Assembly (NCBI GenBank): GCA_945898215.1
Contig: CAMDHY010000010.1
Coordinates: forward strand, 1 to 64,000
Source of the DNA: Pseudoxanthobacter soli DSM 19599
Lineage (GTDB): Bacteria; Pseudomonadota; Alphaproteobacteria; Rhizobiales; Segnochrobactraceae
Direction of reading: 5' to 3'
DNA length: 64,000 nucleotides
In this document: piece by piece, positions 31,151-62,194 of the stretch
Layout: each line of letters begins with the position of its first letter
How positions within the stretch are numbered: position 1 is the stretch's first letter
The notes under the pieces: model-generated
Seen by the model: only the letters and a program-made list of their open reading frames with translations
Database searches by the model: none
What the model was told of the DNA's origin: nothing
Made by a program: the position numbers and the translations under genes

Positions 31151-31861
31151 ATGATCGCCCCTCCCGAACCCTCCCCCTGGCACGAGGCCCGCGCCGGAGC
31201 CGTCGCCATCCTGCCCGCCGCCGTCGCGGTGGTGCCGTTCGCTCTGCTGCTCGGAGCGCTCGCCGCCGAGAAGGGGCTGTCACCGCTCGAGGTGGCGCTG
31301 ATGTCGGCGCTGGTCTTCGCCGGCAGCTCGCAGTTCGTCGCGCTCGATCTCTGGACGACGCCGGCCGCCTGGGTGACGCTCGGTTCGGCGGCGCTGCTCG
31401 TCAACCTCCGCCACATCCTGATGGGCGCCTCGATCGCGCCGAAGATGGCCGGGTTCCACCCGATCGCCAGGGTGCTGGCGCTGCTGCTGCTCGCCGACGA
31501 GATCTGGGCGATGGCCGAGCGGCGGGCGGCGGCGCGGCCGCTGACGGCCGCCTATTTCTTCGGCCTCGGCGGGCTGCTGTACGTCAACTGGGTGCTGTTC
31601 ACGACGGCCGGGGCCGTCGTCGGCGCGCGCTTCGGCGATCCGGCCGCCTACGGCTTCGACTTCGCCTTCACGGCGATCTTCATCGGGCTGATCGCCGGCT
31701 TCCGCCACACCCGCGGTTTCCTGCCGACGGTCGCCGCGGCGGCGCTCGCCGCCGTCGCCACGCAGGCGGTGCTGCCGGGCCCGGTCTCGATCGCGGTGGG
31801 CGCGGCGGCCGGGGTCGCGGTGGCCGCGATCCTGCCGCCCCGCCGGGAGGCCGCCGCGTGA
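31151..31861 (+). CDS. azlC: AzlC-family branched-chain amino acid exporter, large subunit
   Basis: A 236-residue membrane protein. RAGAVAILPAAVAVVPFALL at the N-terminus, MSALVFAGSSQFVALDL, NLRHILMGASIAP and the C-terminal FTAIFIGLIAGF are AzlC hallmarks. AzlC and AzlD together export branched-chain amino acids or analogues. Its stop overlaps the start of azlD by 4 bp (GTGA). The ATG at 31151 is chosen by family length; the ribosome binding site is weak, and an in-frame extension reaches back to 31016 without family similarity. Confidence 0.9.
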   Translation: MIAPPEPSPWHEARAGAVAILPAAVAVVPFALLLGALAAEKGLSPLEVALMSALVFAGSSQFVALDLWTTPAAWVTLGSAALLVNLRHILMGASIAPKMAGFHPIARVLALLLLADEIWAMAERRAAARPLTAAYFFGLGGLLYVNWVLFTTAGAVVGARFGDPAAYGFDFAFTAIFIGLIAGFRHTRGFLPTVAAAALAAVATQAVLPGPVSIAVGAAAGVAVAAILPPRREAAA

Positions 31862-32160
31862 GCCTCGACCCGGCGACGCTCGCGGCCATCCTGGCGATGG
31901 CGGCGGCGACGATCTTCACCCGCCTCGCCGGCCTGGTGATGCCGGCCTCAGCGCTGCGTCACCCGCGGGCGCGCGCCGCGTTCGAGGCGGTGCCGGCGGC
32001 CGTGCTCGCCGCCCTGATCGCGCCGACGGTACTGGCGACGGGCTGGCCGGAGACGGTGGCGGCCCTTCTGACGGCGCTCGCGGCCCTGCGGCTGCCCTTG
32101 CTCGCGGTCGTGGCCGTCGGCGTCGTCGCGGCGGCGCTGCTGAGGGCGGTCGCCGGCTGA
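31858..32160 (+). CDS. azlD: AzlD-family branched-chain amino acid exporter, small subunit
   Basis: A 100-residue membrane protein with three to four hydrophobic helices: LDPATLAAILAMAAATIFTR, then LAGLVMPASALRHPRARAAF, EAVPAAVLAALIAPTVLATG and a final LLAVVAVGVVAAALLRAV. This matches AzlD, the obligate partner of AzlC. GTG start overlapping the azlC stop by 4 bp, a coupled pair. It ends 2 bp from the stop of the convergent flavin reductase gene. Confidence 0.9.
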   Translation: MSLDPATLAAILAMAAATIFTRLAGLVMPASALRHPRARAAFEAVPAAVLAALIAPTVLATGWPETVAALLTALAALRLPLLAVVAVGVVAAALLRAVAG

Positions 32161-32162
32161 CG

Positions 32163-32705
32163 TCAGACGGCGTGCGGCACGTAGGCGCCGAAGCCGCCGT
32201 TGCCATAGACGAGCGGCGGCGGCTCCGCCCGCGTCTCGACGCCGAGCACGCGGCCGAGGAAGATCGTGTGGGTGCCGCCGTCGATCGTCTGGACGATGCG
32301 GCAGTCGAAGGAGGCCGGGGCGTCCGACAGGACCGGGCAGCCGCTTGGCGTCGCCGTCCAGCGCCCCGTGACGAACCGCTCCTCCCGCCGCCGGCTCGAC
32401 GAGAAGATGCGGGCGATCTCGGCGTGTTCCTCGGCGAGGATGGTGACGGCGAAGACGCCGGAGGAGTGCACGGCGTCGTGGGCGCTGGCGGTCTTGCTGA
32501 TGCAGACGAGCAGCGTCGGCGGTTCCATCGACACCGACGTCACCGAGGAGGCGACTAGCCCGACCGTCTCGCCGCGGTGGCGCGAGGAGACGATGCAGAC
32601 GCCGCTGAACAGGCTCCGCATCCCCCGGCGGAAGAGGTCGGGATGGACGGTGTCCGGCTCGGCGGTGATCTCATCCATGGCGGCATCGGTCCCGTTCGGC
32701 GGCAT
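32163..32705 (-). CDS. Flavin reductase domain protein (HpaC/RutF-like)
   Basis: A 180-residue flavin:NAD(P)H oxidoreductase that supplies reduced FMN/FAD to a monooxygenase partner. RGMRSLFSGVCIVSSRHRGE, VGLVASSVTSVSMEPPTLLV, KTASAHDAVHSSGVFAVTIL and GGTHTIFLGRVLGVE follow the Flavin_Reduct fold in order. It is the third gene of a unit (LLM oxidoreductase, esterase, this reductase) with gaps of 10 and 11 bp, making the LLM protein its likely partner. Start at ATG 32705 (MPPNGTDAAM); ATG 32678 is nearly as good. Confidence 0.9.
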   Translation of the reverse strand: MPPNGTDAAMDEITAEPDTVHPDLFRRGMRSLFSGVCIVSSRHRGETVGLVASSVTSVSMEPPTLLVCISKTASAHDAVHSSGVFAVTILAEEHAEIARIFSSSRRREERFVTGRWTATPSGCPVLSDAPASFDCRIVQTIDGGTHTIFLGRVLGVETRAEPPPLVYGNGGFGAYVPHAV

Positions 32706-32716
32706 CCGGCCCCGTC

Positions 32717-33664
32717 TCAGGCGAAGGCCTTCGCCAGGCGCCGCGCGCAGTCGCGGAGGGCCGCGTCGGCCTCGTCGAGCAGGCCGCGCAGCGAGACGAA
32801 TCCGTGGATCATGTCGGGGTGGCGGACGTGCTCCACCGCCACGCCGGCCGCGGCGAGGCGCTCGGCATAGGCGTCGCCCTCGTCGCGCAGCGGGTCGAAG
32901 CCCGCCGTCAGCACCAGCGCCGGCGGCAGGCGCGTCAGGTCCGGGGCGAGCAGCGGCGAGGCGAGGGGATGCGTGCCGTCGCCGTCGGGGCCGAGATAAC
33001 TCGCGATGTAGAAGGGCATCGAGTTGAGGAGATAGCCCTTCGAGAACAGCCGCTTCGACTCCGTGGCGCTGGTCAGGTCCGTCACCGGGTAGATCAGCAG
33101 CTGATAGCGGATCTCCGGGCCGCCCGCGTCGCGGGCAGCGAGCGTCACCGCGGCGGCGATGTTGCCGCCGGCGCTGTCGCCGCCGACCGCGATGCGGCGG
33201 GCGTCGATGCCGTGGCGGGCGGCGTCCGCCGCAACAGCGCGCAGCACCGCCAGCGCGTCGTCGACGGCCGCCGGGAAGCGGTGCTCGGGGGCGAGGCGGT
33301 AGTCGACCGACAGCACCGCGCACGGCGTCTCGTGGGCGAGCACGCGGCAGAGCGAATCGTGGGTGTCGAGGTCGCCGCGGATGTAGCCGCCGCCGTGATA
33401 GTAGACGAGCAGCGGCCACGGCCCAGCGCGCGAGCCCTCGGGCACGTAGAGGCGCGCGGCGATCGGACCGGCCGGCCCCGGGAAGCTCGTCTCGGTGACG
33501 CCGATCCCCTGCGGCGCCGGCGCATCGACGGCGAGGACGTCGCACTTCCACTCGCGCCGCGCCTCGTCGGGATCCTGGATCTCGACCGGCGTGGCGTTCG
33601 GGTTCTCCGGCGCCGCGAGGATGGTGCGCAGCTTGGGGTGAAGCTCGTCCGGCCGCGTGGTCAT
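32717..33664 (-). CDS. Alpha/beta hydrolase, hormone-sensitive-lipase-like esterase
   Basis: A 315-residue carboxylic ester hydrolase of family IV. The oxyanion motif HGGG is in LLVYYHGGGYIRGDLDTHD, the nucleophile Ser is in VGGDSAGGNIAAAV, the acid Asp is in TAGFDPLRDEG and the His is in HPDMIHGFVSL. LSVDYRLAPEHRFPAAVDDA is typical. Cytosolic: no signal peptide. Sitting between an LLM flavin oxidoreductase and a flavin reductase, it could hydrolyse an ester or lactone produced by the oxygenase; that is inference from the operon. ATG start 10 bp after the LLM stop. Confidence 0.92.
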   Translation of the reverse strand: MTTRPDELHPKLRTILAAPENPNATPVEIQDPDEARREWKCDVLAVDAPAPQGIGVTETSFPGPAGPIAARLYVPEGSRAGPWPLLVYYHGGGYIRGDLDTHDSLCRVLAHETPCAVLSVDYRLAPEHRFPAAVDDALAVLRAVAADAARHGIDARRIAVGGDSAGGNIAAAVTLAARDAGGPEIRYQLLIYPVTDLTSATESKRLFSKGYLLNSMPFYIASYLGPDGDGTHPLASPLLAPDLTRLPPALVLTAGFDPLRDEGDAYAERLAAAGVAVEHVRHPDMIHGFVSLRGLLDEADAALRDCARRLAKAFA

Positions 33665-33674
33665 CCCGTGCGTC

Positions 33675-34781
33675 TCACTCGGCCGCGGTGGCGTGGAAGG
33701 CGGCCGGCGCCCCGGGGAAGCGCGGCATCACCTCTTCGGCGAAGCGCTGCAGCCAGCGGCGGCGCGGGCCGGTCGGCACGCCGGGCGTCGCGGTGTGGAG
33801 GAGGAAGGTGTTGAAGCCGGCGTCGATGTAGGCCTGCAGCTTGCGCGCCGCGGTGTCCGGCGTGCCAACGAGCTGCCACTCGCACCACGGCGGGATGTTG
33901 ACCGGGTCGCACCGCTTCTTCATGCCGGAGAACGCATTGCTCCATGCCTTGTATCCGGCGATGTCCTTGTAGTGGTCGGCGTCGGCCTCGTAGTGGTCGA
34001 CCTGCGCCTTCATGAACGGCGGGATGTGCGTCTGCGCCTGGCGCACCGCCTCGGCGTCGCTGTCCTCGATGACGCAGTTGATCATGATCGGCAGCGGCAC
34101 GTCGGTCGCGAAGCCGTGGCTCTTCGCCCGCTTCGCCCACTCGGTGAGCGTCGCCGCCTGGGCGTCGAGGTTGCCGATCGTCGTGCAGATCGGCGGCAGC
34201 CCCTCGTCGGCCATCACCTGGGCACTCTCCGGGCTCGCGCCGATGGCGCCGTAGAAGTGCAGGCCGTCGAGCGGCGCCTTCGGCCGGAGCCGCGTCTCCT
34301 TCGGCACCGACAGGAGCTTCCCCTCGAAGGTGAAGCTGTCCTTGCTGAGGCCGTCGCGGACGATGCGCAGCGTCTCGACGAAGCGGATGCGCGCCTCCTC
34401 CATGTCGATGCCGAAGCGGTCGTACTCGTACTTCGCCGTGCCGCGGCCGAAGCCGAGGTGGATCGGCGCGTCCGTCAGCAGCCGCAGCTGGGCGATCGAG
34501 CCGGCGAGCCTGAGCGCGTTGTACCAGGGGGCGATGAGCACGCAGGTGCCGAGCCCGGCTTTCGGGAAGCGGCCGGCGATATGGGAGAGGAAGGCGAGGG
34601 GGTCGGGCGTCGGGAAGTAGTCGGAGAAGTGGTGCTCGATCATCCAGACGGTGCTGTAGCCGAGCCCGAGGCCGATTTCGACGTCGCCGATCAGGTCGCG
34701 GTACATCTGCCGGTCACTGGTGCCGGCGCCGCCGGAGGCGGTCGCGACGAAGCCGAATTCGAGGGGCCGGCTGGCGTTCAT
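33675..34781 (-). CDS. LLM-class flavin-dependent oxidoreductase
   Basis: A 368-residue luciferase-like (bacterial luciferase alpha-type) oxidoreductase using reduced flavin. LEFGFVATASGGAGTSDRQM at the start, the TIM-barrel block YSTVWMIEHHFSDYFPTPDP (with the EHHF motif), LIAPWYNALRLAGSIAQLRL, LGFGRGTAKYEYDRFGIDME and GTPDTAARKLQAYIDAGFNT are characteristic. Likely a monooxygenase fed by the reductase two genes downstream. A TGGTCTA-N5-TAGACCA operator lies 85-103 bp upstream. The ATG at 34781 gives the standard N-terminus; the substrate is unknown. Confidence 0.9.
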   Translation of the reverse strand: MNASRPLEFGFVATASGGAGTSDRQMYRDLIGDVEIGLGLGYSTVWMIEHHFSDYFPTPDPLAFLSHIAGRFPKAGLGTCVLIAPWYNALRLAGSIAQLRLLTDAPIHLGFGRGTAKYEYDRFGIDMEEARIRFVETLRIVRDGLSKDSFTFEGKLLSVPKETRLRPKAPLDGLHFYGAIGASPESAQVMADEGLPPICTTIGNLDAQAATLTEWAKRAKSHGFATDVPLPIMINCVIEDSDAEAVRQAQTHIPPFMKAQVDHYEADADHYKDIAGYKAWSNAFSGMKKRCDPVNIPPWCEWQLVGTPDTAARKLQAYIDAGFNTFLLHTATPGVPTGPRRRWLQRFAEEVMPRFPGAPAAFHATAAE

Positions 34782-34865
34782 GCGTCTCGCTCCCTCGCCG
34801 GCGCCGTTCGGCAGCGGGCGTGTTCTCCGCACATCGTGCCCTTACGTTAGCAAGCCGCGGGCCAA

Positions 34866-34884
34866 TGGTCTAGAAGTTAGACCA
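34866..34884. promoter_or_regulatory. GntR/FCD operator, copy 1 (upstream of LLM-esterase-reductase unit)
   Basis: TGGTCTAGAAGTTAGACCA: perfect 7-bp arms TGGTCTA/TAGACCA around a 5-bp centre. TGGT...ACCA ends are typical of FadR-type GntR operators. It lies between the GntR gene stop (34923) and the LLM gene start (34781), in the LLM promoter region. A second 19-bp copy of the same pattern is at 38131-38149. Confidence 0.75.
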
Positions 34885-34922
34885 AGTGACATCCAAGACG
34901 TCGGTGGAGCCCCGCAGCGCCG

Positions 34923-35696
34923 TCAGACGACGGACGGCGCCGGCTTGCGCGGCCTCGGCAGGAGGTCGTGAAGGCTGGTGCGTGTCGCCTCGATATGGGC
35001 GCGCATGTGGGCGCCCGCCGCCGCGCTGTCGCGCTCGCGGATGGCCTCGAAGATCGCGGCGTGGTGGTCGTTGGCGTTGGCTTCGAGGCGCGTGAACACC
35101 CGGCCGACCGGCAGGAACATCGCTGCGCGGCCGTCCTCGACGGCCTTGAGCAGGAAGGGATTGGCCGAAGCCCGGGCGATGGCGAGGTGGAACTCGGAAT
35201 CCCAGGCGCCGAAGCGGGCGATGTTGGCGGTGACCTCGCGCGCCTCCGGCGTCGCGCCGAGCTTGTCCATCTCCTCGACCGCGCGGGAAAGCCGCCTCAG
35301 CTGCGATTCCGTCCGCCGGGCCGCCGCGAGGGCTGCGGCGGCGCACTCGTTGGCGACGCGGAACTCGAAGACGCTGTCGAGCATGACGCGCTGCGTCTCC
35401 ATGTAGGACTTCACCTGGCCTGGGGTCAGCTGCGCCTGGCCGAGCACGACGAGGCCGCCGGTGGCGCCGCGGCGCACGGTGACGAGGCCCTCGCCCTCGA
35501 GCACCCGCACCGCCTCGCGGATCGTCGTGCGCGACACCCCCATCTGGCTCGCGAGGTCGCGTTCGGGCGGCAGCTTGTCGCCGGGCAGGAAGCGGCCGAG
35601 ATAGATGGCGCGGCGCACCTGTTCCACCACCAGTTCGTAGGTGGCGGCGGCGCGCACCGACCCGATCAGCGGACGCTCACCCTCGACGGCCGTCAC
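34923..35696 (-). CDS. GntR-family transcriptional regulator, FadR (FCD) subfamily
   Basis: A 257-residue regulator. Winged HTH in residues ~15-85: VVEQVRRAIYLGRFLPGDKL, PPERDLASQMGVSRTTIREA, VRVLEGEGLVTVRRGATGGL. The FCD ligand domain from ~95 has the metal/ligand residues in FRVANECAAAAL, DSEFHLAIARASANPFLL and DHHAAIFEAIRERDSAAAGA with MRAHIEATR. FCD proteins usually bind carboxylic acids and act as repressors released by the substrate of the adjacent pathway. GTG start with GAGGA 6 bases upstream. The gene sits in the middle of the module it probably controls, with matching operators on both sides (34866 and 38131). Confidence 0.93.
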   Translation of the reverse strand: MTAVEGERPLIGSVRAAATYELVVEQVRRAIYLGRFLPGDKLPPERDLASQMGVSRTTIREAVRVLEGEGLVTVRRGATGGLVVLGQAQLTPGQVKSYMETQRVMLDSVFEFRVANECAAAALAAARRTESQLRRLSRAVEEMDKLGATPEAREVTANIARFGAWDSEFHLAIARASANPFLLKAVEDGRAAMFLPVGRVFTRLEANANDHHAAIFEAIRERDSAAAGAHMRAHIEATRTSLHDLLPRPRKPAPSVV

Positions 35697-35772
35697 CCGT
35701 TCCTCCGTCCGTTCGATCGCCGCCTCGGCACCGGCGCAGACCTGCGTCTAGCACAACCGGGCCGCGACCGGC

Positions 35773-36537
35773 TCATCGCGCCGTCACGCCGCCGTCGACG
35801 AACAGCGTCGTGCCGGTGACGTAGGAGGCGCGCGTGGAGAGAAGGAACTCCACCGCGTCGGCGATCTCCTCGCAGGTGCCGAAGCGGCCAAGCGGGATCT
35901 CCTGTTTCAGGCGGGCGACGACCTGTTCCTCGCTGCCGCCCCAGCCGATCGCCCGCATCGACGGGCTCAAAGGCAGCGCCAGGATGAAGCCCGGCGCGAT
36001 GGCGTTGACGCGGATGCCGCGCGGAGCCAGTTCGCACGACAGGTAGCGCGTGAAGGCCTCCAGTCCGGCCTTCGACGCCCCGTACATCGAGGCACCGGGT
36101 AGGCGGCCGAGCGAGCCGGTGACGCTCGAGATGTTGACGACCGAGGCACCCGGGGCGAGGTGGGCGTCGGCGGCGCGGCAGACGCGGGCGGAGCCGGCGA
36201 CGTTCACCTGCCAGACGGCGTCCATGTCCTCGTCCCGGACGGCGTCGATCGGCGTGTAGCGGACGATGCCATGGCAGTTGACGACGCCGGCGAGCGGTCC
36301 GCCGGCCAGCTCGACCGATGCCGCCACGCAGGCGTCGACGCTTGCCGGATCGCGCACATCGAGATGGTGGACGAACACGTCCGCCGGACCACCCGCGACG
36401 GGCGTGCCGTTCTGCGCCGGATCGACGGCCGTGTCGGCGGCGATGACGCGCCAGCCCTCGCCGGCGAGGCGTTTGTAGATCGCCGAGCCGATCCCGCCGA
36501 CGCCGCCCGTCACCAGCACAGTCCGCTTGTCGCTCAC
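35773..36537 (-). CDS. SDR-family oxidoreductase
   Basis: A 254-residue classical SDR. Cofactor site [15 protein letters not shown] from residue ~9, VNCHGIVRY as the NNAG-equivalent, catalytic Ser in [10 protein letters not shown] and YxxxK as [13 protein letters not shown]-terminal [20 protein letters not shown] and [13 protein letters not shown] catalytic role in oxidising a hydroxyl of the pathway intermediate is likely, but the substrate is unknown. GTG 36537 is chosen because GGGAG lies 8 bases upstream and the N-terminus ([12 protein letters not shown]) is standard. It lies between the glutamine-synthetase-like gene (95 bp) and the GntR gene (76 bp) on the same strand. Confidence 0.9.
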
Positions 36538-36632
36538 TCGGAGTCTCCCGGAAGTCTTGCAAAATCTATGGCGCGAGGCATGGCCCAACGGCTCCGGGCG
36601 CACGGAGGTGATCGCGGCCGCGCCGACGGGCG

Positions 36633-38003
36633 TCAGATGCGCTCGAAGTAGCGCATCATCTCCCAGTCGGTGACGGTCTCCTGCTCGAAGGCCTCCACCT
36701 CCTGCCGGTAGAAGTGCGTGAGGTGGGCGTGCGTGATGTCGCCGAACGCGGCCTTCGCCGCGGCGCTGTCGGCGAAGAGCGCGACCGCGTCTCGCAGCGT
36801 CGGCGGCACGCGCGGCAGCGAGGCGTCGAGATAGGCGTTGGCGTCATAGATCGGCGGCGTCGGCAGCCCCGCCTCGATGCCGTCGAGGCCGCTCGCCAGG
36901 ATGCCCGCGAGGACCAGGTAGGGATTGGCATCGGCGCCGGGGATGCGCGATTCCACCCGGAAACTCGGGCCGTGGCCGACGAGGCGGAAGCCGCAGGTGC
37001 GGTTGTCGCCGCCACAGACGAGCTGCACCGGGGCGAAGGATTCCCGGCGGAAGCGCTTGTAGGAATTGACCGTCGGCGCGAACATCAGCGCGTAGTCGCG
37101 CCCGCCGGCGATCATGCCGGCGACGAACGCGCCGAAGCGCGGCGCCATGTGGCTCGCCGTCGCGGCGTCGAAGCTCGCAGGATTGCCGTCCGTACCCCAC
37201 AGGCTGACGTGGACGTGGCAGGACGAGCCGACCTCGTCGATGAAGGGCTTCGCCATGAAGGTCGCCGACAGCCCGTGCTGGCTGACGATCTCCTTCACCC
37301 AGTTCTTGTAGAGGAGGTGGCGGTCGGCCATCTCCAGCGCATCGGCATAGCGCAGCGCGATCTCCTGCTGGCCGAGGCCCCACTCGGTCTTGGCGTTCTC
37401 CACCTCAATTCCGGCGGCCTCCATCATTGCGCAGAGTTCGCCGATCAGCGGCTCGTCGCGGGTCGACTGCAGCATGTGGTAGTCGGCGCGGTAGCGCGAC
37501 GTCGGCTTCAGGCCACGGTAGCGCTTCTCCCAGGCCTCGTCGTAGCTGTCGCGGAAGAGGAAGAATTCAAGCTCGCTCGCGCACTTGAAGCTGAAGCCCA
37601 GCGCGGCGGCGCGGGCGAGCTGCCGCTTCAGGATGGTGCGCGGCGCCATCGCCATCTCGACACCGTCGTGGTTAACGGCGTCGCAGAGCACGAAGGCCGT
37701 CTTCGGCACCCACGGCAGCACGCGGATGGTCGAAAGGTCCGGCCGCATGACGCAGTCCTGGAAGCCCTTGTCCCAGCCGGTGAGCGCGTAGCCGGGGCGC
37801 GGGTCCATGTCCATGTCGACGCAGAACAGGTAGACCGAGGCGTGCACGCCCTCCGATCCGAGGGCAGCCGAGAGGAAGTTCTTCGCCGTCAGCCGCTTGC
37901 CGACGAGCCGGCCCCAAAGGTCCGGCATCGCGCAGATGACGGTGGCGATCTCGCCGGCGGCGATGCGGCTCTTCAGGTCGTCGAGGCCTAGGAGATTGCT
38001 CAT
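36633..38003 (-). CDS. Glutamine synthetase-family ligase (gamma-glutamylamine-type)
   Basis: A 456-residue GS-fold ligase. The beta-grasp N-terminus reads [20 protein letters not shown]; the catalytic barrel has [12 protein letters not shown] (Mg-binding E-x-E), [30 protein letters not shown] (H-x-H), [26 protein letters not shown] and the C-terminal [20 protein letters not shown]. The adenylylation Tyr loop of GlnA is absent. The closest style is PuuA/GlnT and related enzymes that ligate glutamate to amines for catabolism. It heads the presumed GntR regulon. The N-terminal ATG 38003 gives [10 protein letters not shown]; no good ribosome binding site is visible. Confidence 0.87.
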
Positions 38004-38040
38004 CTTGGAGGGTACTCGGAGGAAAGCGGAAGGCCGCAGC

Positions 38041-38080
38041 AACGCGAGACCGTCGCCAGTAACGCGAGACCATCACCGGC
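38041..38080. repeat. Two tandem 20-bp repeats upstream of the GS-like gene
   Basis: AACGCGAGACCGTCGCCAGT and AACGCGAGACCATCACCGGC are adjacent and agree at 16 of 20 positions, with the first 11 identical. A weaker third echo (CACGCGAGCCC) follows at about 38095. They lie 38-77 bp before the GS-like start, where direct-repeat regulator sites could act. Confidence 0.55.
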
Positions 38081-38130
38081 CCGGCCGGTGCCACGCGAGC
38101 CCGAGAGCGCCCGACGAACGTCGCTCCCAT

Positions 38131-38149
38131 TGGTTTATGTCTCAGACCA
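38131..38149. promoter_or_regulatory. GntR/FCD operator, copy 2 (upstream of GS-like gene)
   Basis: TGGTTTATGTCTCAGACCA has the same 19-bp length and the same ends as the site at 34866 (TGGTCTAGAAGTTAGACCA), agreeing at TGGT, TA at 6-7 and AGACCA. Arms TGGTTTA/CAGACCA pair with two mismatches. It lies 128-146 bp before the GS-like start codon, so it could control the upstream end of the same module. Confidence 0.65.
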
Positions 38150-38600
38150 CGAGCCCCATTAGTCAAGCATGATCGCCGGAGTGTCGGAGACAGCCGCCGG
38201 AAGCCGCCGCCGGACGTCTCCCGACGGGACGGCGACCGGGACTGTGCTTCCTCCGCACCGCGCGATCTGCGATCACTGCCCGACGAGACACTGGTAGGAC
38301 CAATAAAGCGCCCGGGATTTGCTGGCCCGGACCCGGCTATCTACAACGGACCCCGGTGCCGTCCCGGTCTCGGCGTGATGATGTCCGCGGTCGATTTCAG
38401 GCCATGACTTTGGCGCGCTGCGCGGCGCCCACTCGCGTTGAGATTGTCCAGAACTCCCGGTGAAACCATCGTTCTGGACCTGATGTAAACCAAGTCGCTC
38501 TTACGAAAATCCGCTCGAATTTGCTTGGCGCTCTTGATTTCGCCGTCGTCTTCGGCAATTTGTTGCGTCGACAAAGATCGATTCGTAACCGGAGTTGAAA

Positions 38601-39077
38601 ATGTCCGACGACAACGACGACCTGATGGCGCTGACGGCCAATATCGTGGCCGCCTATGTGATGAACAACAACGTCCAGTCCGCCGATCTGCCGGCGCTCA
38701 TCGGGCAGGTTCACAGCGCCCTCCACAAGACGGTGCAGGGCGAGACGACGGCCGCGCCGGCGCCGCTGGTTCCCGCCGTCCCGGTGAAGAAGTCGGTGAC
38801 GCCCGATTACATCATCTGCCTCGAGGACGGGAAGAAGTACAAGTCGCTGAAGCGGCACCTTCGCACCGCCTACAATCTCAGCCCCGAGGAATATCGCGCG
38901 AAGTGGGGCCTGCCGGCCGACTATCCGATGGTCGCCCCGAACTATGCGGCGACCCGTTCGGCGATGGCGAAGAGCCTCGGCCTCGGCCAGCTGCGCAGCC
39001 GCAAGGCCGCCCCGGTCGAGCCGCCGCCGCCGCCGGCCCCCAAGAAGCGGGCGCCCGCCAGGAAGAAGGCCGCCTGA
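38601..39077 (+). CDS. mucR: MucR/Ros-family zinc-finger transcriptional regulator
   Basis: A 158-residue regulator of the Ros/MucR family, which in Hyphomicrobiales controls exopolysaccharide, motility, virulence and cell cycle genes by binding AT-rich DNA and oligomerising. N-terminal oligomerisation helix (LMALTANIVAAYVMNNNVQS), then the prokaryotic zinc finger DYIICLEDGKKYKSLKRHLR, with Cys73, Asp76 and His86; the position of the second His carries Ala90, as in a common subset of the family. NLSPEEYRAKWGLPADYPMV and APNYAATRSAMAKSLGLGQ follow. The C-terminus is Pro/Lys-rich (PPPPPAPKKRAPARKKAA), longer than usual. ATG 38601 with GGAG about 7 bases upstream. Confidence 0.93.
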   Translation: MSDDNDDLMALTANIVAAYVMNNNVQSADLPALIGQVHSALHKTVQGETTAAPAPLVPAVPVKKSVTPDYIICLEDGKKYKSLKRHLRTAYNLSPEEYRAKWGLPADYPMVAPNYAATRSAMAKSLGLGQLRSRKAAPVEPPPPPAPKKRAPARKKAA

Positions 39078-39148
39078 TCACCGCCGGCCGGCAGCGCAAC
39101 GCCGCCGTGTCTCGCCGTCGACCCCGTCGCCGGCCCTCGTGAGATCCT

Positions 39149-39187
39149 GAACGCCCCTCTCGCATCTGACGTGCGGGTGGGGCGTTC
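39149..39187 (+). terminator. Hairpin after mucR
   Basis: GAACGCCCC (39149-39157) and GGGGCGTTC (39179-39187) are perfect 9-bp arms enclosing a 21-base loop that itself can pair partly (CTCGCA/TGCGGG). It lies 72 bp after the mucR stop and ends 9 bp before the arginase-family gene. The T-run is weak (GCCGTTTG), so termination is likely but not certain. Confidence 0.6.
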
Positions 39188-39196
39188 GCCGTTTGA

Positions 39197-40165
39197 GTGG
39201 GGCTCGTCTTGACCAAACTCTCGCTCCGGCCCGCCGAACCGGCCTTCCTCGGCGTCCCGCTTCGCGACCTCGCCGCGGTGAACCCCGGCGACATCGCGGT
39301 CTTCGGCGCAGGCCACGGAACGCCCTATCCGGCCGACGACGCCATCGGTTACGCCCTCGACACCGGCAGTGCCGAGGCGCCGGCGGCGATCCGGCGGGGC
39401 GCCGTGCAGTCGAGCAGCAACCTCGACCACTGGGACTACGACCTCGGCGGGCCGCTGTTCGGCGACGGCCCGGTCCGCCTCGTCGATTGCGGCGACGTCG
39501 CCACCACGGCGGACGACGGCGCCAGCAACCGCGCCCGGATCGAGGCGGTGACGGCCGCGCTCGTCGGCCGCGGCGCCGTGCCGGTGCTGCTCGGCGGCGA
39601 CGATTCCGTGCCCATCCCCTTCCACCGCGGCTTCGCCGACGCGGGACCGCTGGCGATCCTGCAGATCGACGCGCATATCGACTGGCGCGACACCATCGGC
39701 GGTGAGCGCGACGGCTATTCGAGCACGATGCGGCGGGCGTCGGAGCTGCCGTTCGTCCGGGCGATCGTGCAGGTCGGCGCGCGCGGCGTCGGCAGCGCGC
39801 GGCGGCGGGAGGTCGAGGCGGCCGCGGCGTGGGGGGCCCATATCCTGCCGGCGGAGGTCTTTCGCCGGGACGGCGTCGAGGCGGTGGTGCGCGCCCTGCC
39901 GGAGGACCTGCCGGTGCTGATCGCCCTCGATCTCGACGCCTTCGATCCGAGCCTCGTGCCCGCCGTCAACGCGCCGACGCCGGGCGGCCCGCTGTTTCCG
40001 GAGGTCGCCGCACTGGTGCGCCGTGTCGCGTCGACGCGGCCGATCGCCGGCATCTCAGTGGTGGAACTCGTTCCGCAGCTCGACGCGACGGGCGTGTCGG
40101 CGATGGTCGCCGCGCGCTTCGTGCTCAATGTCGTCGGGGCGATGGTGCGCCGGGAGGCTCGCTGA
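39197..40165 (+). CDS. Arginase/agmatinase-family ureohydrolase with GGDD variant
   Basis: A 322-residue binuclear-manganese ureohydrolase. Metal motifs are present in order: VLLGGDDSVPIP, ILQIDAHIDWRD and LIALDLDAFDPSLVPAVNAP. In the first motif the usual metal-binding His (GGDHS) is Asp, while DAHxD and DxDxxDP are intact, so the first site would be Asp-ligated. Members of this sort are usually labelled agmatinase, but other guanidine compounds are possible. GTG 39197 is used; TTG 39209 (MTKLSLRPAEPAF) is a good alternative. It follows mucR and is not clearly linked to the GntR module upstream. Confidence 0.82.
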   Translation: MGLVLTKLSLRPAEPAFLGVPLRDLAAVNPGDIAVFGAGHGTPYPADDAIGYALDTGSAEAPAAIRRGAVQSSSNLDHWDYDLGGPLFGDGPVRLVDCGDVATTADDGASNRARIEAVTAALVGRGAVPVLLGGDDSVPIPFHRGFADAGPLAILQIDAHIDWRDTIGGERDGYSSTMRRASELPFVRAIVQVGARGVGSARRREVEAAAAWGAHILPAEVFRRDGVEAVVRALPEDLPVLIALDLDAFDPSLVPAVNAPTPGGPLFPEVAALVRRVASTRPIAGISVVELVPQLDATGVSAMVAARFVLNVVGAMVRREAR

Positions 40166-40968: not shown

Positions 40969-41457
40969 CTAGGTCGTGTGGATCGGCAGCGCCGCGGTGT
41001 CCTTCACCGTCGAGACGACGATGCGCGACTGCACGTCCGAGACGAGCTCGTTGTCGAGCAGCTTCAGGCGCAGGAAGTCGTCGTACGTCTTGATGTCGTC
41101 GGTCACCACCTTGAGCAGGTAGTCGACGGCGCCGGTCACCCGCTCGCAGGTGACCACCTCCGGCCAGCGCTCGATCAGCCGGTCGAAGCGCTCCATGTTG
41201 TCCCGGCTCGGCAGCGCCAGCTTGACGAAGGCGTAGGAGACGAAGCCGAGCCCGACCGCCTCGCGGTCGACGAGGGCGGCGACGCGCCGGATGACGCCCG
41301 CCTCCTTCATCCGCTTGATGCGCCGCCAGCACGGCGTCGCGCTCATGCCCGCCTCCCGCGCCACGTCGGCGACCGACAGCGAAGCGTCGCGCTGCAGGAT
41401 GCGCAGGATGCGGAGATCGCCAGCGTCGAGGGCGATCCGTTCGATGGATGGCTTCAT
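40969..41457 (-). CDS. Lrp/AsnC-family transcriptional regulator
   Basis: A 162-residue feast/famine regulator. HTH in residues 10-60: LDAGDLRILRILQRDASLSV, ADVAREAGMSATPCWRRIKR, MKEAGVIRRVAALVDREAVG. The RAM/AsnC effector domain follows (SYAFVKLALPSRDNMERFDR, VVTCERVTGAVDYLLKVVTD). ATG 41457 is standard; the in-frame extension upstream is not. It is divergent from the indolepyruvate ferredoxin oxidoreductase gene with a 145-bp gap, so it probably senses an aromatic or branched-chain amino acid and controls that gene. Confidence 0.92.
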   Translation of the reverse strand: MKPSIERIALDAGDLRILRILQRDASLSVADVAREAGMSATPCWRRIKRMKEAGVIRRVAALVDREAVGLGFVSYAFVKLALPSRDNMERFDRLIERWPEVVTCERVTGAVDYLLKVVTDDIKTYDDFLRLKLLDNELVSDVQSRIVVSTVKDTAALPIHTT

Positions 41458-41602
41458 CGGGGAGAGATTTTGCGGAGGATGCTCGGGAAGCCGAAAGGTT
41501 AGCACGGAATTCGCGGCAAACTCGCATTATTCTCGTGCGGATGGGGATCGCGGCCTCCGCCCACCAAGCCGTCGGCGGGCCGCAGCGGGAGTGGAGGCGC
41601 AC

Positions 41603-44600
41603 GTGACCGTGCCGATCCGAAACGTCAGCCTCGACGACAAGTATGTCCGCGATGCCGGCCTCGTCTACATCACCGGCATCCAGGCGCTGGTGCGGGTGGC
41701 GCTCGACCGCGTGCGCCTCGACCGCGCCGCGGGCAAGCGCACCGGCGGCTTCGTCTCCGGCTATCGCGGCTCGCCCCTCGGCGGCTTCGACCAGGAGCTC
41801 GGCCGCGCCCGCAAGCTCATCGCCGCCCACGACATCCACTTTCAGCCGGGCGTCAACGAGGAGCTCGGCGCCACGGCGGTCTGGGGCACCCAGAAGGTCG
41901 GCCTGCACGGCCAGGGCACCGATTTCGACGGCGTCTTCGGCATCTGGTACGGCAAGGCGCCTGGCGTCGACCGCGCCGGTGACGTGCTCAAGCAGGCGAA
42001 CGCCAGCGGCACCTCGGCACTCGGCGGCGTGCTGGCGCTCGCCGGCGACGACCACCTGGCGAAGTCCTCGATCCTGCCAGCCCAGAGCGAGTTCTTCTTC
42101 GTCCACGCCGAGATGCCGGTGCTGAACCCGGCCGACCTGCAGGACGTCGTCGACTACGGCCTGCACGGCATCGAGCTGTCGCGCTACGCCGGGCTGTGGA
42201 CGGCGATGATCTGCGTCGCCGACACCATGGACGCCTCCGGCATGGTCGACGTCTCGGCCGGCCGCCTCGCCTTCGCCCACCCAGCCGACGCCGATCCGCG
42301 CCGGCGCGGCGAGATGAACCGCGCGCTTCTGCTCGGCAACCGGCTCGAGACCGAGCGCCTGCTGCGCGACGTCCGCCTGCCGGCGGTGAAGGCCTATGTG
42401 CGCGGCAACCGCCTCGACCGCGTCACGTTCGGATCGCCGCGCCCGCGCGTCGGCATCGTCGCCACCGGCAAGGCCTATCGCGACCTGCTGCAGGCGCTCT
42501 TGATGCTCGGCATCGACGAGAAGCGCGCCCGCGCCATCGGCCTCGCCGTCTACAAGGTGGCGATGCCCTGGCCGCTCGAGCCGCAGGGGCTCGCCGCCTT
42601 CGCCCGCGGCCTCGAGCGCGTGCTCGTCGTCGAGCACAAGCGCCCGCTGATCGAGCCGCAGGTGAAGGACCTCGCCTATCACTGGCCATCCGACCAGCGC
42701 CCGCCGGTGTGGGGCAAGACGACGCCGGAGGGCATCCCCTTCCTCACCGACCTCCTCGAGCTCACCGCCTCCGAACTCGTCCAGGCGCTGATGAGCTTCC
42801 TGCCGGAGGCCGCTGCCGACCCGGAGATGCGGGCTGTCGCCGACCGCATGGTGCAGCAGTCGGCTTGGGCCGCCGGCCACGCCGAGCGCGCCGGCCGCTC
42901 GCCCTACTTCTGCTCCGGATGCCCGCACAACACCTCGACCAAGGTGCCCGACGGCGCTCGCGCCATGCCCGGGATCGGCTGCCATGCCATGACGGAAATC
43001 CCCGGCCGCACCACCGACGGCCAGGTGGCGATGGGCGGCGAGGGCGTGCCGTGGATCGGCCAGATGCCCTTCGCCAACGACAAACACGTCTTCGCCAACA
43101 TGGGCGACGGCACCTACTTCCACTCCGGCATCCTGGCGATCCGCCAGGCGGTGTCGGCGAAGGCGCCGATCACCTACAAGATCCTCTTCAACGACGCCGT
43201 CGCCATGACCGGCGGCCAGGCCCACGACGGGCCGCTGACGGTGCCGATCCTCACCCGCCAGCTCGCCGCGGAGGGCGTCGAGAGGATCGTCGTCGTCACC
43301 GACGAGCCCGAGCGCTACGACGGCCGCCACGACCTGCCGGCCGGCACGCCGGTGGCGCACCGCGACGACCTCATGCCGATCCAGGCCGAGCTCGCCGCCT
43401 ATCCCGGCGTCTCCGTCCTCGTCTACGACCAGACCTGCGCTGCCGAGAAGCGCCGCCGCCGCAAGCGCGGCCTGATGCCCGATCCGGACAAGCGCCTTAC
43501 CATCAACCCGCGGGTCTGCGAGGGCTGCGGTGACTGCTCGGTGCAGTCTAACTGCATCTCGGTCGAGCCGCTCGCCACCGCCTTCGGCGAGAAGCGGGTG
43601 ATCAACCAGTCGAGCTGCAACAAGGATTTCTCCTGCGTCGAGGGCTTCTGTCCGTCCTTTGTCTGGGTCGACGGTGCGAAGCTCCGGGCCGCGGACGGGG
43701 CGGGCCTCGATGTCGCCGGGCTCGCCGCGAAGCTGCCGCTACCGACGCCGCCGGCCCTCGACCGCACGCTCAACCTCTTGGTCGCCGGCATCGGCGGCAT
43801 GGGTGTCACCACCGTCGGCGCGACGCTTGCGATGGCGGCCCACATCGACGGCATCAACGCCTCTACCCTCGACATGACCGGTCTCGCCCAGAAGGGCGGT
43901 CCGGTCACCTCGCACGTCCGCTTCGCCGCCCGCAACGCGGCGATCGAGGGCCCGCGCATCCCGCCGACGATGCTCGACGCGTTGGTCGCCTCCGACATGG
44001 TCGTCGCCAGCACCGGCGAGACCCTGGCGCTGCTCGATCGCCGCCGGACGCTCGCCGTGGTCAACACCCACGTCGCGCCGACGGCCGAGTTCGCCATGCG
44101 CCAGACGCTCTCCTTCGACGCGGGCAAGATGGCGCGCACGCTGCGCGAGGGCACCCACGACTTCATCGGCCTTGACGCCGTCGCCGTCGCCGAGGCGGTG
44201 TTCGGCGATGCGATCTTCACCAACATGCTTCTGGTCGGCCTCGCCTGGCAGACCGGCGCGCTGCCGCTGTCGATCGAGGCGATCGAGACCGCCATCCGCC
44301 TGAACGGCGCTGCGGTCGACAAGAACATCAAGGCCTTCCATGCCGGCCGCGTGCTGGCCGCCGACCCGCAGGCGATCCTGGCGGCACTGCCGAAGCCGGC
44401 GCAGGTGCCCGTGATGGGGCCCGAGGAGCGCATCGACTTCCTCGCCGCCGAGCTCGAGGCCTATCAGGACACCGCCTATGCGCGGAGCTTCCGCGACCTC
44501 GTCCTGCGCGTTCGCGAGGCCGATGCGGCCCGCGGCGCCGGCGGCGGCCGCCTCGCCGGCCACGTGGTCGAGAGCCTCTACCGCGTCATGGCCTACAAGG

Positions 44601-45091
44601 ACGAGTACGAGGTCGCCCGCCTCTATGCCGACCCCGCCTTCCGCGCTGGACTGGAGCGGCAGTTCTCCGGCTTTGGCCGCCTGCGCGTCATGCTGGCGCC
44701 GCCGCTCCTGTCGCGTCCCGATCCGGTGACGGGGCGGGCGAAGAAGCGCGCCTTCGGGCCGTGGATCTTCACCGCCTTCGCCTGGCTCGCGAGGGGCAAG
44801 GGCCTGCGCGGCACCGCCCTCGATCCGTTCGGCTACACCGCCGAGCGGCGCGCCGAGCGGGCGGCGATCGACGCCTACCGGGCGGACATCGCCCTCATCC
44901 TCGAGCGGCTCGGGCAGGCCGACTACGGCCTCCTCTGCGAGCTGGCGCGCCTGCCCCAGGACGTGCGCGGCTACGGGCCGGTGAAGGAGGGTCGCCGGGC
45001 CGTGGCGTCGGAACGGCGGGCGGCCCTGCTGCAGCGGCTCGCGGCGCCGGCGGCCGGCGCCGGGGCTCCGGTGCTCGACGCCGCGGAGTGA
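41603..45091 (+). CDS. Indolepyruvate ferredoxin oxidoreductase, fused alpha/gamma (IorA-IorB type)
   Basis: A 1162-residue TPP- and iron-sulfur-dependent enzyme that oxidatively decarboxylates aryl pyruvates to arylacetyl-CoA with ferredoxin as acceptor. N-terminal half: pyrimidine-binding domain (FVSGYRGSPLGGFDQELGRA, FQPGVNEELGATAVWGTQ), then a TPP-binding domain (ANMGDGTYFHSGILAIRQAV with FNDAVAMTGGQAHDG). Cys-rich cluster motif NPRVCEGCGDCSVQSNC at Cys639, Cys642, Cys645, then NKDFSCVEGFCPSF. C-terminal gamma domain (VAGIGGMGVTTVGATLAMAA and DMTGLAQKGGPVTSHVRF). GTG 41603 follows GGGAGTGGAGG, which is a good ribosome binding site. The fused single-chain form is usual in aerobic alphaproteobacteria. 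It may also use branched-chain oxo acids. Confidence 0.93.
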   Translation: MTVPIRNVSLDDKYVRDAGLVYITGIQALVRVALDRVRLDRAAGKRTGGFVSGYRGSPLGGFDQELGRARKLIAAHDIHFQPGVNEELGATAVWGTQKVGLHGQGTDFDGVFGIWYGKAPGVDRAGDVLKQANASGTSALGGVLALAGDDHLAKSSILPAQSEFFFVHAEMPVLNPADLQDVVDYGLHGIELSRYAGLWTAMICVADTMDASGMVDVSAGRLAFAHPADADPRRRGEMNRALLLGNRLETERLLRDVRLPAVKAYVRGNRLDRVTFGSPRPRVGIVATGKAYRDLLQALLMLGIDEKRARAIGLAVYKVAMPWPLEPQGLAAFARGLERVLVVEHKRPLIEPQVKDLAYHWPSDQRPPVWGKTTPEGIPFLTDLLELTASELVQALMSFLPEAAADPEMRAVADRMVQQSAWAAGHAERAGRSPYFCSGCPHNTSTKVPDGARAMPGIGCHAMTEIPGRTTDGQVAMGGEGVPWIGQMPFANDKHVFANMGDGTYFHSGILAIRQAVSAKAPITYKILFNDAVAMTGGQAHDGPLTVPILTRQLAAEGVERIVVVTDEPERYDGRHDLPAGTPVAHRDDLMPIQAELAAYPGVSVLVYDQTCAAEKRRRRKRGLMPDPDKRLTINPRVCEGCGDCSVQSNCISVEPLATAFGEKRVINQSSCNKDFSCVEGFCPSFVWVDGAKLRAADGAGLDVAGLAAKLPLPTPPALDRTLNLLVAGIGGMGVTTVGATLAMAAHIDGINASTLDMTGLAQKGGPVTSHVRFAARNAAIEGPRIPPTMLDALVASDMVVASTGETLALLDRRRTLAVVNTHVAPTAEFAMRQTLSFDAGKMARTLREGTHDFIGLDAVAVAEAVFGDAIFTNMLLVGLAWQTGALPLSIEAIETAIRLNGAAVDKNIKAFHAGRVLAADPQAILAALPKPAQVPVMGPEERIDFLAAELEAYQDTAYARSFRDLVLRVREADAARGAGGGRLAGHVVESLYRVMAYKDEYEVARLYADPAFRAGLERQFSGFGRLRVMLAPPLLSRPDPVTGRAKKRAFGPWIFTAFAWLARGKGLRGTALDPFGYTAERRAERAAIDAYRADIALILERLGQADYGLLCELARLPQDVRGYGPVKEGRRAVASERRAALLQRLAAPAAGAGAPVLDAAE

Positions 45092-52046: not shown

Positions 52047-52113
52047 GATCCATGATCACGGTCGAAGGGTGGGCTTCGCGCGCTCCGGCCACGTTTCGTG
52101 ATCCGTGATCACA
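52047..52113. repeat. Two copies of GATCCRTGATCAC near the end of livF
   Basis: GATCCATGATCACG (52047-52060) and GATCCGTGATCACA (52100-52113). The second contains a GTGATC-CGT-GATCAC dyad (52098-52112) and overlaps the livF stop. They lie in the gap between livF and the acyl-CoA dehydrogenase gene, 85-160 bp upstream of the latter's start in the transcriptional sense, so they could serve a regulator of that gene or be part of an untranslated hairpin. Confidence 0.45.
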
Positions 52114-52816
52114 CCCCGAGATACGCCTCGCGCACCTTCGGGTCGTCGAGGAGGGCGCGGCCAGTGCCGGTCAGCGTCACGGTGCCGAGCTCCAGCACGT
52201 AGCCGCGGTCGGCGATGGCGAGTGCGGCGGCGGCGTTCTGCTCGACGAGCAGCACCGTCATGCCCTCAGAGCGCAGGCGAGTGATGGCGGCGAGGATCTG
52301 GTCGACGATCACCGGTGCGAGCCCGAGCGAGGGCTCGTCCAGCAGCAGCAGCTTCGGCGCCGCCATCAGGGCACGGCCGATCGCCAGCATCTGCTGCTGG
52401 CCGCCCGACAGCGAGCCCGCCGCCTGGCGGCGCCGCTCCTTCAGGATCGGAAACAGCGTGAAGCAGCGCTCGAGGTCGGCCGTCGCGGCCGCAGCCCCGT
52501 CGCGCCGCCGGTAGCCGCCGAGGCGGAGGTTGTCCTCGACCGACAGCGGCGCGAACACCTGCCGGCCCTCCGGCGACTGCGAGATGCCCCGCGCCACGCG
52601 CACGTGCGACGCCAGACGCTCGATCGGCTGGCCCTCGAAGACGATGCGGCCGGCGGCGGCGGGCTCGATGCCGGAGATGGTGCGGAGGAGCGTCGTCTTG
52701 CCGGCGCCATTCGCGCCGACCAGCGCCACGATCTCGCCGGCGCCGACGGTGAGGTCGACGCCCTTCAGCGCCTCGATGCGGCCGTAGCGCGCCTTCAGGC
52801 CCTCAACGGTCAGCAC
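52109..52816 (-). CDS. livF: LIV-type ABC transporter ATP-binding protein LivF
   Basis: A 235-residue ATPase of the HAAT (branched-chain amino acid-type) importer. Walker A GANGAGKTTLL, signature LSGGQQQMLAIGRAL, Walker B KLLLLDEPSLGLAP, switch His replaced by EQNAAAALAIADRGYV as usual in LivF. It works as heterodimer with LivG. Start 14 bp inside the end of livG. Confidence 0.93.
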   Translation of the reverse strand: MLTVEGLKARYGRIEALKGVDLTVGAGEIVALVGANGAGKTTLLRTISGIEPAAAGRIVFEGQPIERLASHVRVARGISQSPEGRQVFAPLSVEDNLRLGGYRRRDGAAAATADLERCFTLFPILKERRRQAAGSLSGGQQQMLAIGRALMAAPKLLLLDEPSLGLAPVIVDQILAAITRLRSEGMTVLLVEQNAAAALAIADRGYVLELGTVTLTGTGRALLDDPKVREAYLGV

Positions 52817-54586: not shown

Positions 54587-54587
54587 C

Positions 54588-55460: not shown

Positions 55461-55559
55461 GACCGGTTTCGCCGCCGCGTTCGGATCGGGAAGGGGCGCG
55501 CGCCGCGTCGGCCGCGGCGCGCCAGGGGCCGGATCAGTCCGTGGATCGGGCCGTCGGGA

Positions 55560-56726: not shown

Positions 56727-56775
56727 CGGGTTTCCTCCGAAACGGGGTTTTTGGCTTGTTTTTGGTCTTGGTCGC

Positions 56776-58440: not shown

Positions 58441-58583
58441 GTCTCGCCTCCCGGCTCGGTCTCGTCGCCGGCGCGGGTCGGGCCGCACCGGCGGCCGGAC
58501 GTTGCCGCAGCGCGTGCCGCAGGCCGTCCGGCGGTTCGTCGATCGGGCCGCGCGGTCGCCGGTTTCGTCGCTCGACGATGCCG

Positions 58584-58632
58584 TTGACTTGCGCCCGATC
58601 GCCGACATAATTAACCGGACGATTGGTCAATT
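58584..58632 (+). promoter_or_regulatory. Promoter with overlapping operator for paaG (shared with paaN)
   Basis: TTGACT (58584-58589), 16-bp spacer, CATAAT (58606-58611): a near-consensus sigma-70 promoter pointing to paaG. The dyad AATTAACC (58609-58616) / GGTCAATT (58625-58632), arms with one mismatch around 8 bp, overlaps the -10 and start site, where a repressor would block transcription. The TetR-family protein at 61519 is the obvious candidate. The leftward paaN promoter is less clear. Confidence 0.72.
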
Positions 58633-58723
58633 CAAGAGGGTTCGTTGTGACCCCCCGACCCGTCGACGACGCGGCCGCCCCCGTTTAAGCCGGAGGACGA
58701 GGCCAGCGAGGAGGAGAGGCGCC

Positions 58724-60003: not shown

Positions 60004-60069
60004 CGTCGCTACTTGCCTGACGCCGCAATCCGCCCAGAGAAGCGGACCCGTATTACGAGGAGGACCGCC

Positions 60070-62172: not shown

Positions 62173-62194
62173 CGGCGGCGGTCCTCCCACCGCC

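What the first reader, a model, noticed from the sequence alone, without database searches (positions are those of the whole stretch)
32163..38149. GntR-controlled six-gene catabolic module with two matching 19-bp operators
Genes on one strand encode a glutamine-synthetase-like ligase, SDR, GntR/FCD regulator, LLM flavin oxidoreductase, esterase and flavin reductase. TGGTCTAGAAGTTAGACCA (34866-34884) lies before the LLM unit and TGGTTTATGTCTCAGACCA (38131-38149) before the ligase; both are 19 bp with shared TGGT, TA and AGACCA. The regulator gene lies between. A two-component flavin monooxygenase plus esterase suggests oxygenation to an ester or lactone followed by hydrolysis, and the GS-like enzyme suggests gamma-glutamylation of an amine. 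I know no described pathway with exactly this set.
Basis: partly seen in the sequence, partly recalled or inferred. Interest (0 to 1): 0.78.

Follow-up and report, generated by a model that had tools for sequence, protein, structure and literature searches.

The report
GntR-run amine/ketone breakdown gene set
Six neighbouring genes share a real, conserved 19-letter control site and look like one version of an undescribed bacterial route for breaking down an amine-bearing ketone, in which relatives seem to swap one oxygen-inserting enzyme for an unrelated one.

Summary
All six genes and both 19-bp sites are where stated, and the site is a conserved operator. A matrix built from nine sites in other genomes ranks the two window sites first and second in 64 kb (24.1, 19.1 bits; next 6.8). 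In 12 relative stretches, 21 of 21 sites with <=2 mismatches are intergenic and beside genes of the same cluster; permuted patterns fail. The GntR/FCD regulator is in 6 of 249 order genomes, all among the 8 with the window's ligase. Relatives add a Liv-type importer, class-III aminotransferases, a second ligase, amidases and, mostly where the luciferase-like monooxygenase (LLM) is missing, a type I Baeyer-Villiger monooxygenase (BVMO). Best reading: an amine catabolic regulon in which LLM plus flavin reductase acts as a type II BVMO, the esterase cleaves the ester, and the GS-like ligase gamma-glutamylates an amine (its ammonium-flap Glu is an invariant Phe). Shown by comparison: operator, synteny, enzyme families. 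Inferred: reactions, repression. Substrate unknown. Operator spacing (GT-N11-AC) departs from the published FadR-subfamily rule (GT-N2-3-AC). New variant of known kinds.

The parts
38131..38149 (.). Operator site 2, TGGTTTATGTCTCAGACCA, upstream of the GS-like gene
   Evidence: Rank 2 in the window with a matrix from non-window sites, 19.1 bits
36633..38003 (-). GS-like ligase (GS-B), probable gamma-glutamyl-amine synthetase
   Evidence: Gln-synt_C 1.2e-87; flap Glu replaced by F323, invariant in 10 of 10 aligned sequences, window included
35773..36537 (-). SDR oxidoreductase
   Evidence: adh_short_C2 1.9e-55; 69-71% relatives in L039, L047, L048 beside GS-B
34923..35696 (-). GntR-family regulator with FCD domain (FadR subfamily)
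   Evidence: GntR 8.4e-22, FCD 1.5e-21; orthologues in 6 of 249 order genomes, own included, all with GS-B
34866..34884 (.). Operator site 1, TGGTCTAGAAGTTAGACCA, upstream of the LLM unit
   Evidence: Perfect 7+5+7 inverted repeat; rank 1, 24.1 bits
33675..34781 (-). Luciferase-like flavin monooxygenase (LLM), proposed type II BVMO
   Evidence: Bac_luciferase 8.1e-41; in 3 of 249 order genomes at E<=1e-80, all module genomes
32717..33664 (-). HSL-family alpha/beta hydrolase, proposed esterase
   Evidence: Abhydrolase_3 1.6e-77; NCBIfam LipP1 355.4 bits, cut-off 350
32163..32678 (-). Flavin reductase, proposed FMNH2 supplier of the LLM
   Evidence: Flavin_Reduct 3.1e-44

Best explanation
The six genes are one genome's version of a conserved catabolic regulon for an amine-bearing compound. 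A FadR-subfamily GntR regulator controls two transcription units through a 19-bp operator, TGGTCTA-N5-TAGACCA, probably as a repressor released by a pathway compound. The GS-like ligase attaches gamma-glutamate to an amine, the SDR makes or consumes a ketone, the LLM with reduced FMN from the reductase inserts oxygen beside the ketone (type II Baeyer-Villiger reaction, replacing the type I BVMO of most relatives), and the HSL-family esterase cleaves the ester. Shown by comparison: operator, co-occurrence, synteny, enzyme families, loss of the ammonium-flap residue. Inferred: each reaction, their order, repression and inducer. Component odds: operator and regulon real 0.92; GntR binds it 0.85; GS acts on an amine 0.85; LLM is a BVMO 0.6. 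The substrate is not identified.
For: Operator. Unlinked out-of-sample pair of sites in Acuticoccus between a Liv importer operon and an aminotransferase operon. GntR in 6 of 249 order genomes, all with GS-B. LLM (E<=1e-80) in 3 of 249, all with GS-B. Type I BVMO in module relatives, with its sequence fingerprint. Precedent: a BVMO and an LLM of one cluster both perform Baeyer-Villiger oxidation of progesterone (PMC12239570, passages). Ligase: flap Glu replaced by Phe, as in GlnA4.
Against: L093 has LLM, esterase, SDR and reductase but no GntR and no site in the 16 kb held. Two module BVMO genes lack a <=2-mismatch site directly upstream: L042, and L047/L048 with a 3-mismatch site. G038 has both BVMO and LLM, so replacement is not strict. 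The LLM model is nearest to bacterial luciferase; the type II BVMO 4uwm ranks 23. No reductase relative was found near the LLM in L042, L044, L091. No own-genome site beyond the two looks like a regulon member among those checked, and the importer and second ligase of relatives have only 37-57% counterparts there, without a site. No promoter matched the sigma-70 consensus.
Confidence: 0.58

Rival explanations
1. Same regulon and operator, but the LLM performs another flavin reaction (aldehyde oxidation, hydroxylation, or C-N/C-S cleavage) and the esterase acts in a separate step.
For: Nearest solved folds are bacterial luciferases; one relative has BVMO and LLM side by side, which would fit different roles (L042).
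Against: LLM-only and BVMO-only versions of the same cluster, and the published case of a BVMO and an LLM with the same activity in one cluster.
Confidence: 0.28
2. A nitrogen-scavenging cluster with a true or general glutamine synthetase; the oxygenase and esterase genes are neighbours of independent use under the same regulator.
For: The genome has 11 Gln-synt_C matches; the best NCBIfam hit of the ligase is type III glutamate-ammonia ligase, below its cut-off (242 of 469.6 bits).
Against: Flap Glu is Phe in 10 of 10 aligned sequences; second ligase, aminotransferases and GATase-type amidases share cluster or operator in relatives.
Confidence: 0.1
3. The 19-bp repeats are bound by a regulator other than this GntR, or are not operators.
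For: GT-N11-AC spacing is outside the published FadR-subfamily rule; G114 and G143 have the site without a detected GntR, though they are 71% and 61% complete.
Against: Site placement, spacer specificity and negative controls; co-occurrence with GntR; sites before the GntR gene itself in L103, L047, L091, L092.
Confidence: 0.1

Closest known systems
pdc progesterone cluster of Caenibius tardaugens (PMC12239570, passages read)
   Same: A type I BVMO and an LLM beside regulator genes, both catalysing Baeyer-Villiger oxidation of a methyl ketone
   Different: The passages mention no GS-like ligase, esterase or GntR (0 occurrences of the last three terms in the text)
Gamma-glutamyl organic amine synthetases: GlnA4, PauA7, NpaA1/AtdA1, PuuA (PMC6529630, PMC11335346, passages read)
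   Same: GS fold with the ammonium-flap Glu replaced by an aromatic residue; amine catabolic gene context
   Different: The window ligase is below the NCBIfam cut-offs of GGputSyn and of type III GS; no Baeyer-Villiger step is known to me with those pathways (recalled)
Ketone routes by BVMO plus esterase (AcmAB, MekAB, Chn; recalled, not read here)
   Same: Oxygen insertion beside a ketone followed by ester or lactone cleavage, with an alcohol dehydrogenase
   Different: Those use type I BVMOs and no GS-like ligase (recalled)
FadR-subfamily GntR operators (PMC4494728, passages read)
   Same: FCD regulator near its targets, TGGT/ACCA half-sites, site before its own gene in some loci
   Different: GT and AC are 11 nt apart here, against 3 nt in most and 2 nt in several groups

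Membership tests
FadR-subfamily (FCD) GntR regulator | GntR winged helix plus FCD domain | tested here: met
   PF00392 8.4e-22 and PF07729 1.5e-21, both over cut-off
FadR-subfamily (FCD) GntR regulator | Canonical operator with 2-3 nt between GT and AC | tested here: not met
   Conserved site has 11 nt; only spacer 5 between the 7-nt arms recurs (rule from PMC4494728). That GntR binds this site is inferred
Gamma-glutamyl organic amine synthetase (GoaS) | Loss of the ammonium-flap Glu (E327 of GSI) | tested here: met
   Glu of 8oow faces F323; SFAP invariant in 10 of 10 sequences
Gamma-glutamyl organic amine synthetase (GoaS) | Loss of the D50 equivalent | not tested
   N-terminal region not aligned to a true GS beyond residue 83
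Gamma-glutamyl organic amine synthetase (GoaS) | Amine, not ammonia, as acceptor | not testable with these tools
   Needs an enzyme assay
Type II BVMO | Luciferase-like fold | tested here: met
   PF00296 8.1e-41; model matches luciferase and 4uwm
Type II BVMO | Closest to a characterised type II BVMO | tested here: not met
   Luciferase 8cbb is rank 1, 3,6-diketocamphane monooxygenase 4uwm rank 23; 4uwm absent from the profile list at 1e-8
Type II BVMO | Separate flavin reductase partner | tested here: inconclusive
   Present next to the LLM in the window; near it in 3 of 6 LLM loci
Type II BVMO | Converts a ketone to an ester | not testable with these tools
   Needs an enzyme assay
Type I BVMO plus esterase route (AcmAB/MekAB kind) | Type I BVMO beside the esterase | tested here: not met
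   None in the window module; the own genome's only relative is 40% on contig C78. Relatives such as L042 and L045 do have one
LipP1-family hormone-sensitive lipase | Score over the NCBIfam cut-off | tested here: met
   355.4 bits, cut-off 350

The most novel reading that the evidence does not exclude
An undescribed amine catabolic pathway in which gamma-glutamyl ligases and Baeyer-Villiger oxidation work on one compound, with type I and type II BVMOs as exchangeable parts, run by a FadR-subfamily regulator whose dimer reads half-sites about 8 bp further apart than the rule.
Probability: 0.45. Interest if true: 0.72.

Novelty: new variant of a known kind. Interest (0 to 1): 0.57.

Why it matters
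It gives a bounded, testable regulon with a predictive operator for a pathway whose substrate is unknown, joins two catabolic chemistries that the searches made here did not find together (open-licence PMC papers only), offers a natural case of type I and type II BVMOs standing in for each other, and points to an FCD regulator group with an unusual operator spacing.

Tried and rejected
Further own-genome matches to the pattern were looked at and set aside as regulon members: C78:6375 lies between two genes that look unrelated; C18:8109, C58:19630 and a matrix hit at C74:12872 lie inside genes; C18:23585 lies between the ends of two convergent genes; C7:67439 lies between a divergent gene and another gene that by eye is a GntR regulator, perhaps its own site. 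The contexts of C152:5316, C64:7105 and C182 were fetched but not examined.

The idea that the own genome holds the missing half of the module elsewhere failed in part: C2 has a Liv-type importer with a 44% relative of the second ligase, but no site within 2 mismatches and a different regulator-like gene upstream (by eye). The own BVMO at C78:18566 is 40% identical and has no site within 3 mismatches in the 7.5 kb stretch L094.

The sigma-70 consensus scan found no promoter in 31800-38600. Conserved gene c6 has no Pfam match up to E 1 in any of 6 members, and one member has no PDB match up to E 1. The in-window shuffle test was not used as proof because its pattern came from the sites. Phenylalkylamine, isopropylamine-type and steroid-like substrates were considered; none is supported enough to name.

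Rows dropped before counts: L048, a near copy of L047, is but not; L041 (3,677 bases, a whole short contig) is not and has no site within 3 mismatches; L116 was added.
Full report
What is in the window. Reading the minus strand 5' to 3': operator site 2 (38149-38131), GS-like ligase (38003-36633), SDR (36537-35773), GntR/FCD regulator (35696-34923), operator site 1 (34884-34866), LLM (34781-33675), HSL-family esterase (33664-32717), flavin reductase (32678-32163). The gaps fit two units, GS-SDR-GntR and LLM-esterase-reductase, each with one site upstream. The genome held is 4.78 Mb in 224 contigs. So an alphaproteobacterium near Hyphomicrobiales is likely (inference).

Is the operator real? 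The pattern TGGTYTA-N5-YAGACCA came from the two sites, so its rarity inside the window proves little. In 12 relative stretches (220,767 bases) it has 4, 9 and 23 places at 0, <=1 and <=2 mismatches. Three hundred patterns with permuted, still mirrored arms average 0, 0.14 and 2.15, with maxima of 0, 5 and 12; none reaches the observed values, and no other spacer from 0 to 15 gives more than 6 at <=2 mismatches. That set includes L048, a near copy of L047 with 3 of the 23 places. A symmetric matrix from the 9 non-window sites with <=1 mismatch in 11 stretches ranks the two window sites 1 and 2, at 24.1 and 19.1 bits, the next at 6.8.

Placement. With L048 dropped and L116 added, 21 of 21 sites with <=2 mismatches are intergenic, in stretches that are 15% intergenic, and each has a cluster gene next to it: a BVMO-type gene in L039, L040, L043 and L116, and in L045 with a small GATase-like gene between; LLM in L042, L044 and L091; the importer's LivG in L039, L040, L045, L047 and L091; GntR in L103, L047, L091 and L092; the esterase in L040; a GATase in L047; an aminotransferase in L092. 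Not all fits: the BVMO genes of L042 and L047/L048 have no such site directly upstream (a 3-mismatch site in L047/L048), and L093 has none at all within 3 mismatches near its LLM. Aligning 16 sites shows a wider palindrome, roughly AATGGTCTA-N5-TAGACCATT.

Controls outside the module. Four of 4 module BVMO loci (L113-L116) have the site against 0 of 8 other BVMO loci (L117-L124); 22 GS-paralogue loci (95,877 bases) have none; 15 LLM-paralogue loci (59,433 bases) have one, at 2 mismatches. L116 was not in the matrix. The exact palindrome TGGTCTA-N5-TAGACCA occurs in 5 of 214 order genomes, one place each: G000, G098, G114, G143, and G023, which is not a module genome. Six of the 214 are module genomes, so 4 of 6 against 1 of 208 (about 9e-7 by hand). 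The backward control pattern is in 22 of the 214, none a module genome. Genome-wide at <=1 mismatch the pattern is no commoner than its backward control in 9 of 11 genomes, so weak matches alone mean nothing; their place does.

Out-of-sample support. That genome-wide scan found two sites in Acuticoccus (G225) on another contig, C20. They lie between an importer operon LivG-SBP-LivF-LivH-LivM, 75-84% identical to that of L040, and a divergent operon of class-III aminotransferase, SDR, c6 and GATase. It was found by motif, not by gene content.

Regulator. GntR orthologues (E<=1e-35) are in 6 of 249 order genomes, own included, all among the 8 with a GS-B orthologue (about 9e-11 by hand). The two without are 71% and 61% complete. 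FadR-subfamily operators mostly have 3 nt, in several groups 2 nt, between GT and AC, with other exceptions such as NanR (PMC4494728, passages); here it is 11. The half-site TGGTCT is that of dre sites of HutC-type GntR proteins (recalled; PMC4333415 seen only in a listing).

Module content. GS-B orthologues at 56-68% are in 7 other genomes of 249 in the order and in 1 other of 385 in a class draw, plus a Hyphomonas-labelled MAG and Oceaniradius stylonematis (near copies of each other). Loci share, as far as the contigs reach, GS-B, SDR, esterase and GntR; many have a second GS-like gene, and several add a Liv-type importer, class-III aminotransferases, c6, AllG-family, creatininase, glutaminase and GATase/C26 or FGase genes. 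The own family's two other sampled genomes lack GS-B and GntR orthologues, so the module is patchy.

LLM or BVMO. LLM relatives at E<=1e-80 are in 3 of 249 order genomes (G000, G038, G225), all module genomes. A class draw adds G611 and G442 (62% and 52%, with GntR and sites) and G534 = L093 (53%; esterase, SDR and reductase but no GntR or site in the 16 kb held); 12 more genomes of that draw have only less similar LLMs, 39-46%. The closest relatives of the L039 BVMO, 52-58%, are in G061, G143 and G114, module genomes in which one search found no LLM (G143 and G114 are incomplete); BVMOs at E<=1e-120 are otherwise common, in 30 of 249 genomes. G038 has LLM and a 49% BVMO side by side, and G232 has a shorter class-B enzyme, 32% identical, with the fingerprint F-x-G-x3-H-x3-W. 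So each of the 8 order genomes has a BVMO-type or an LLM enzyme, and the simplest reading is that a type II BVMO can stand in for a type I. The L042 BVMO matches phenylacetone monooxygenase at 2.3e-197 and steroid monooxygenase at 4.2e-183, enzymes of methyl ketones (recalled). In the pdc cluster a BVMO and an LLM both turn progesterone into testosterone acetate (PMC12239570, passages). Against: the LLM model (3 sequences, mean pLDDT 74.4) is nearest to luciferase, with type II BVMO 4uwm at rank 23.

Ligase. In the alignment to the GS 8oow the Glu of GYEAPV faces F323 of the window ligase, and SFAP is invariant in 10 of 10 aligned sequences, window included. That this Glu is the flap Glu (E327) follows from GS knowledge. 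GlnA4 has a Phe and PauA7 a Trp there (PMC6529630, passages), and NpaA1 lost the flap and D50 residues (PMC11335346, passages). This favours an organic amine over ammonia. The D50 equivalent was not tested.

How it most likely works. Uptake (in relatives by the Liv-type importer), gamma-glutamylation or transamination of the amine, SDR oxidation giving a ketone, oxygen insertion by BVMO or by LLM plus reductase, ester cleavage by the esterase, and removal of glutamate by GATase-type amidases; GntR keeps the operons off until a pathway compound binds. Gene content, conservation and operator placement are shown; order of steps, substrate and sign of regulation are inferred.

Novelty. A search for gamma-glutamyl with Baeyer-Villiger, glutamine synthetase, catabolism and amine gave 0 papers; in the 12 listed of 14 papers with two of four related terms, Baeyer-Villiger is counted 0 times; a third search gave one review on plastics biosensors. 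Only open-licence PMC papers were searched. I file this as a new variant built of known kinds, with an unusual operator.

Noticed in passing
window 52109-63703: Phenylacetate catabolism genes (PaaN, PaaG, PaaI, PaaK over their NCBIfam cut-offs) with a Liv-type ABC importer beside them, about 14 kb from the module; a link to the module is unknown.
   Followed up: partly
window 40969-45091: Indolepyruvate ferredoxin oxidoreductase family gene (1511 bits, cut-off 816) next to a gene that by eye is an Lrp/AsnC-type regulator.
   Followed up: partly
window 38595-40165: A Ros/MucR regulator gene and an arginase-family (agmatinase-like) gene lie directly upstream of the module on the other strand.
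   Followed up: no
L147 7594-13843 (own genome, contig C2): A second Liv-type importer operon ending in a 44% relative of the module's second ligase, with no operator site and another regulator-like gene upstream.
   Followed up: partly
L040 13075-14142; also L039, L042, L045, L091, L092, L148: c6, a conserved protein of about 355 residues with invariant PCGSGGR and G-x-C-x-YC-x-HCC stretches and no Pfam match.
   Followed up: partly
L045 12531-13814; L039 7450-8697: AllG-family (PF06545) gene inside two module clusters without the partner genes expected of an oxamate carbamoyltransferase (expectation recalled).
   Followed up: no
L048 13236-13881: The GntR gene of Oceaniradius matches in two reading frames, unlike its near copy in L047; it may be broken or a sequencing error.
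   Followed up: no
L145 (G023, contig C1149:45865): The only exact palindrome outside module genomes in the 214-genome scan; an SDR relative at 31-32% lies beside it.
   Followed up: partly
L048 2074-4678; L047 3-2484: Thiolase and CoA-transferase genes with an IclR-type regulator lie near the Oceaniradius module and its near copy.
   Followed up: no
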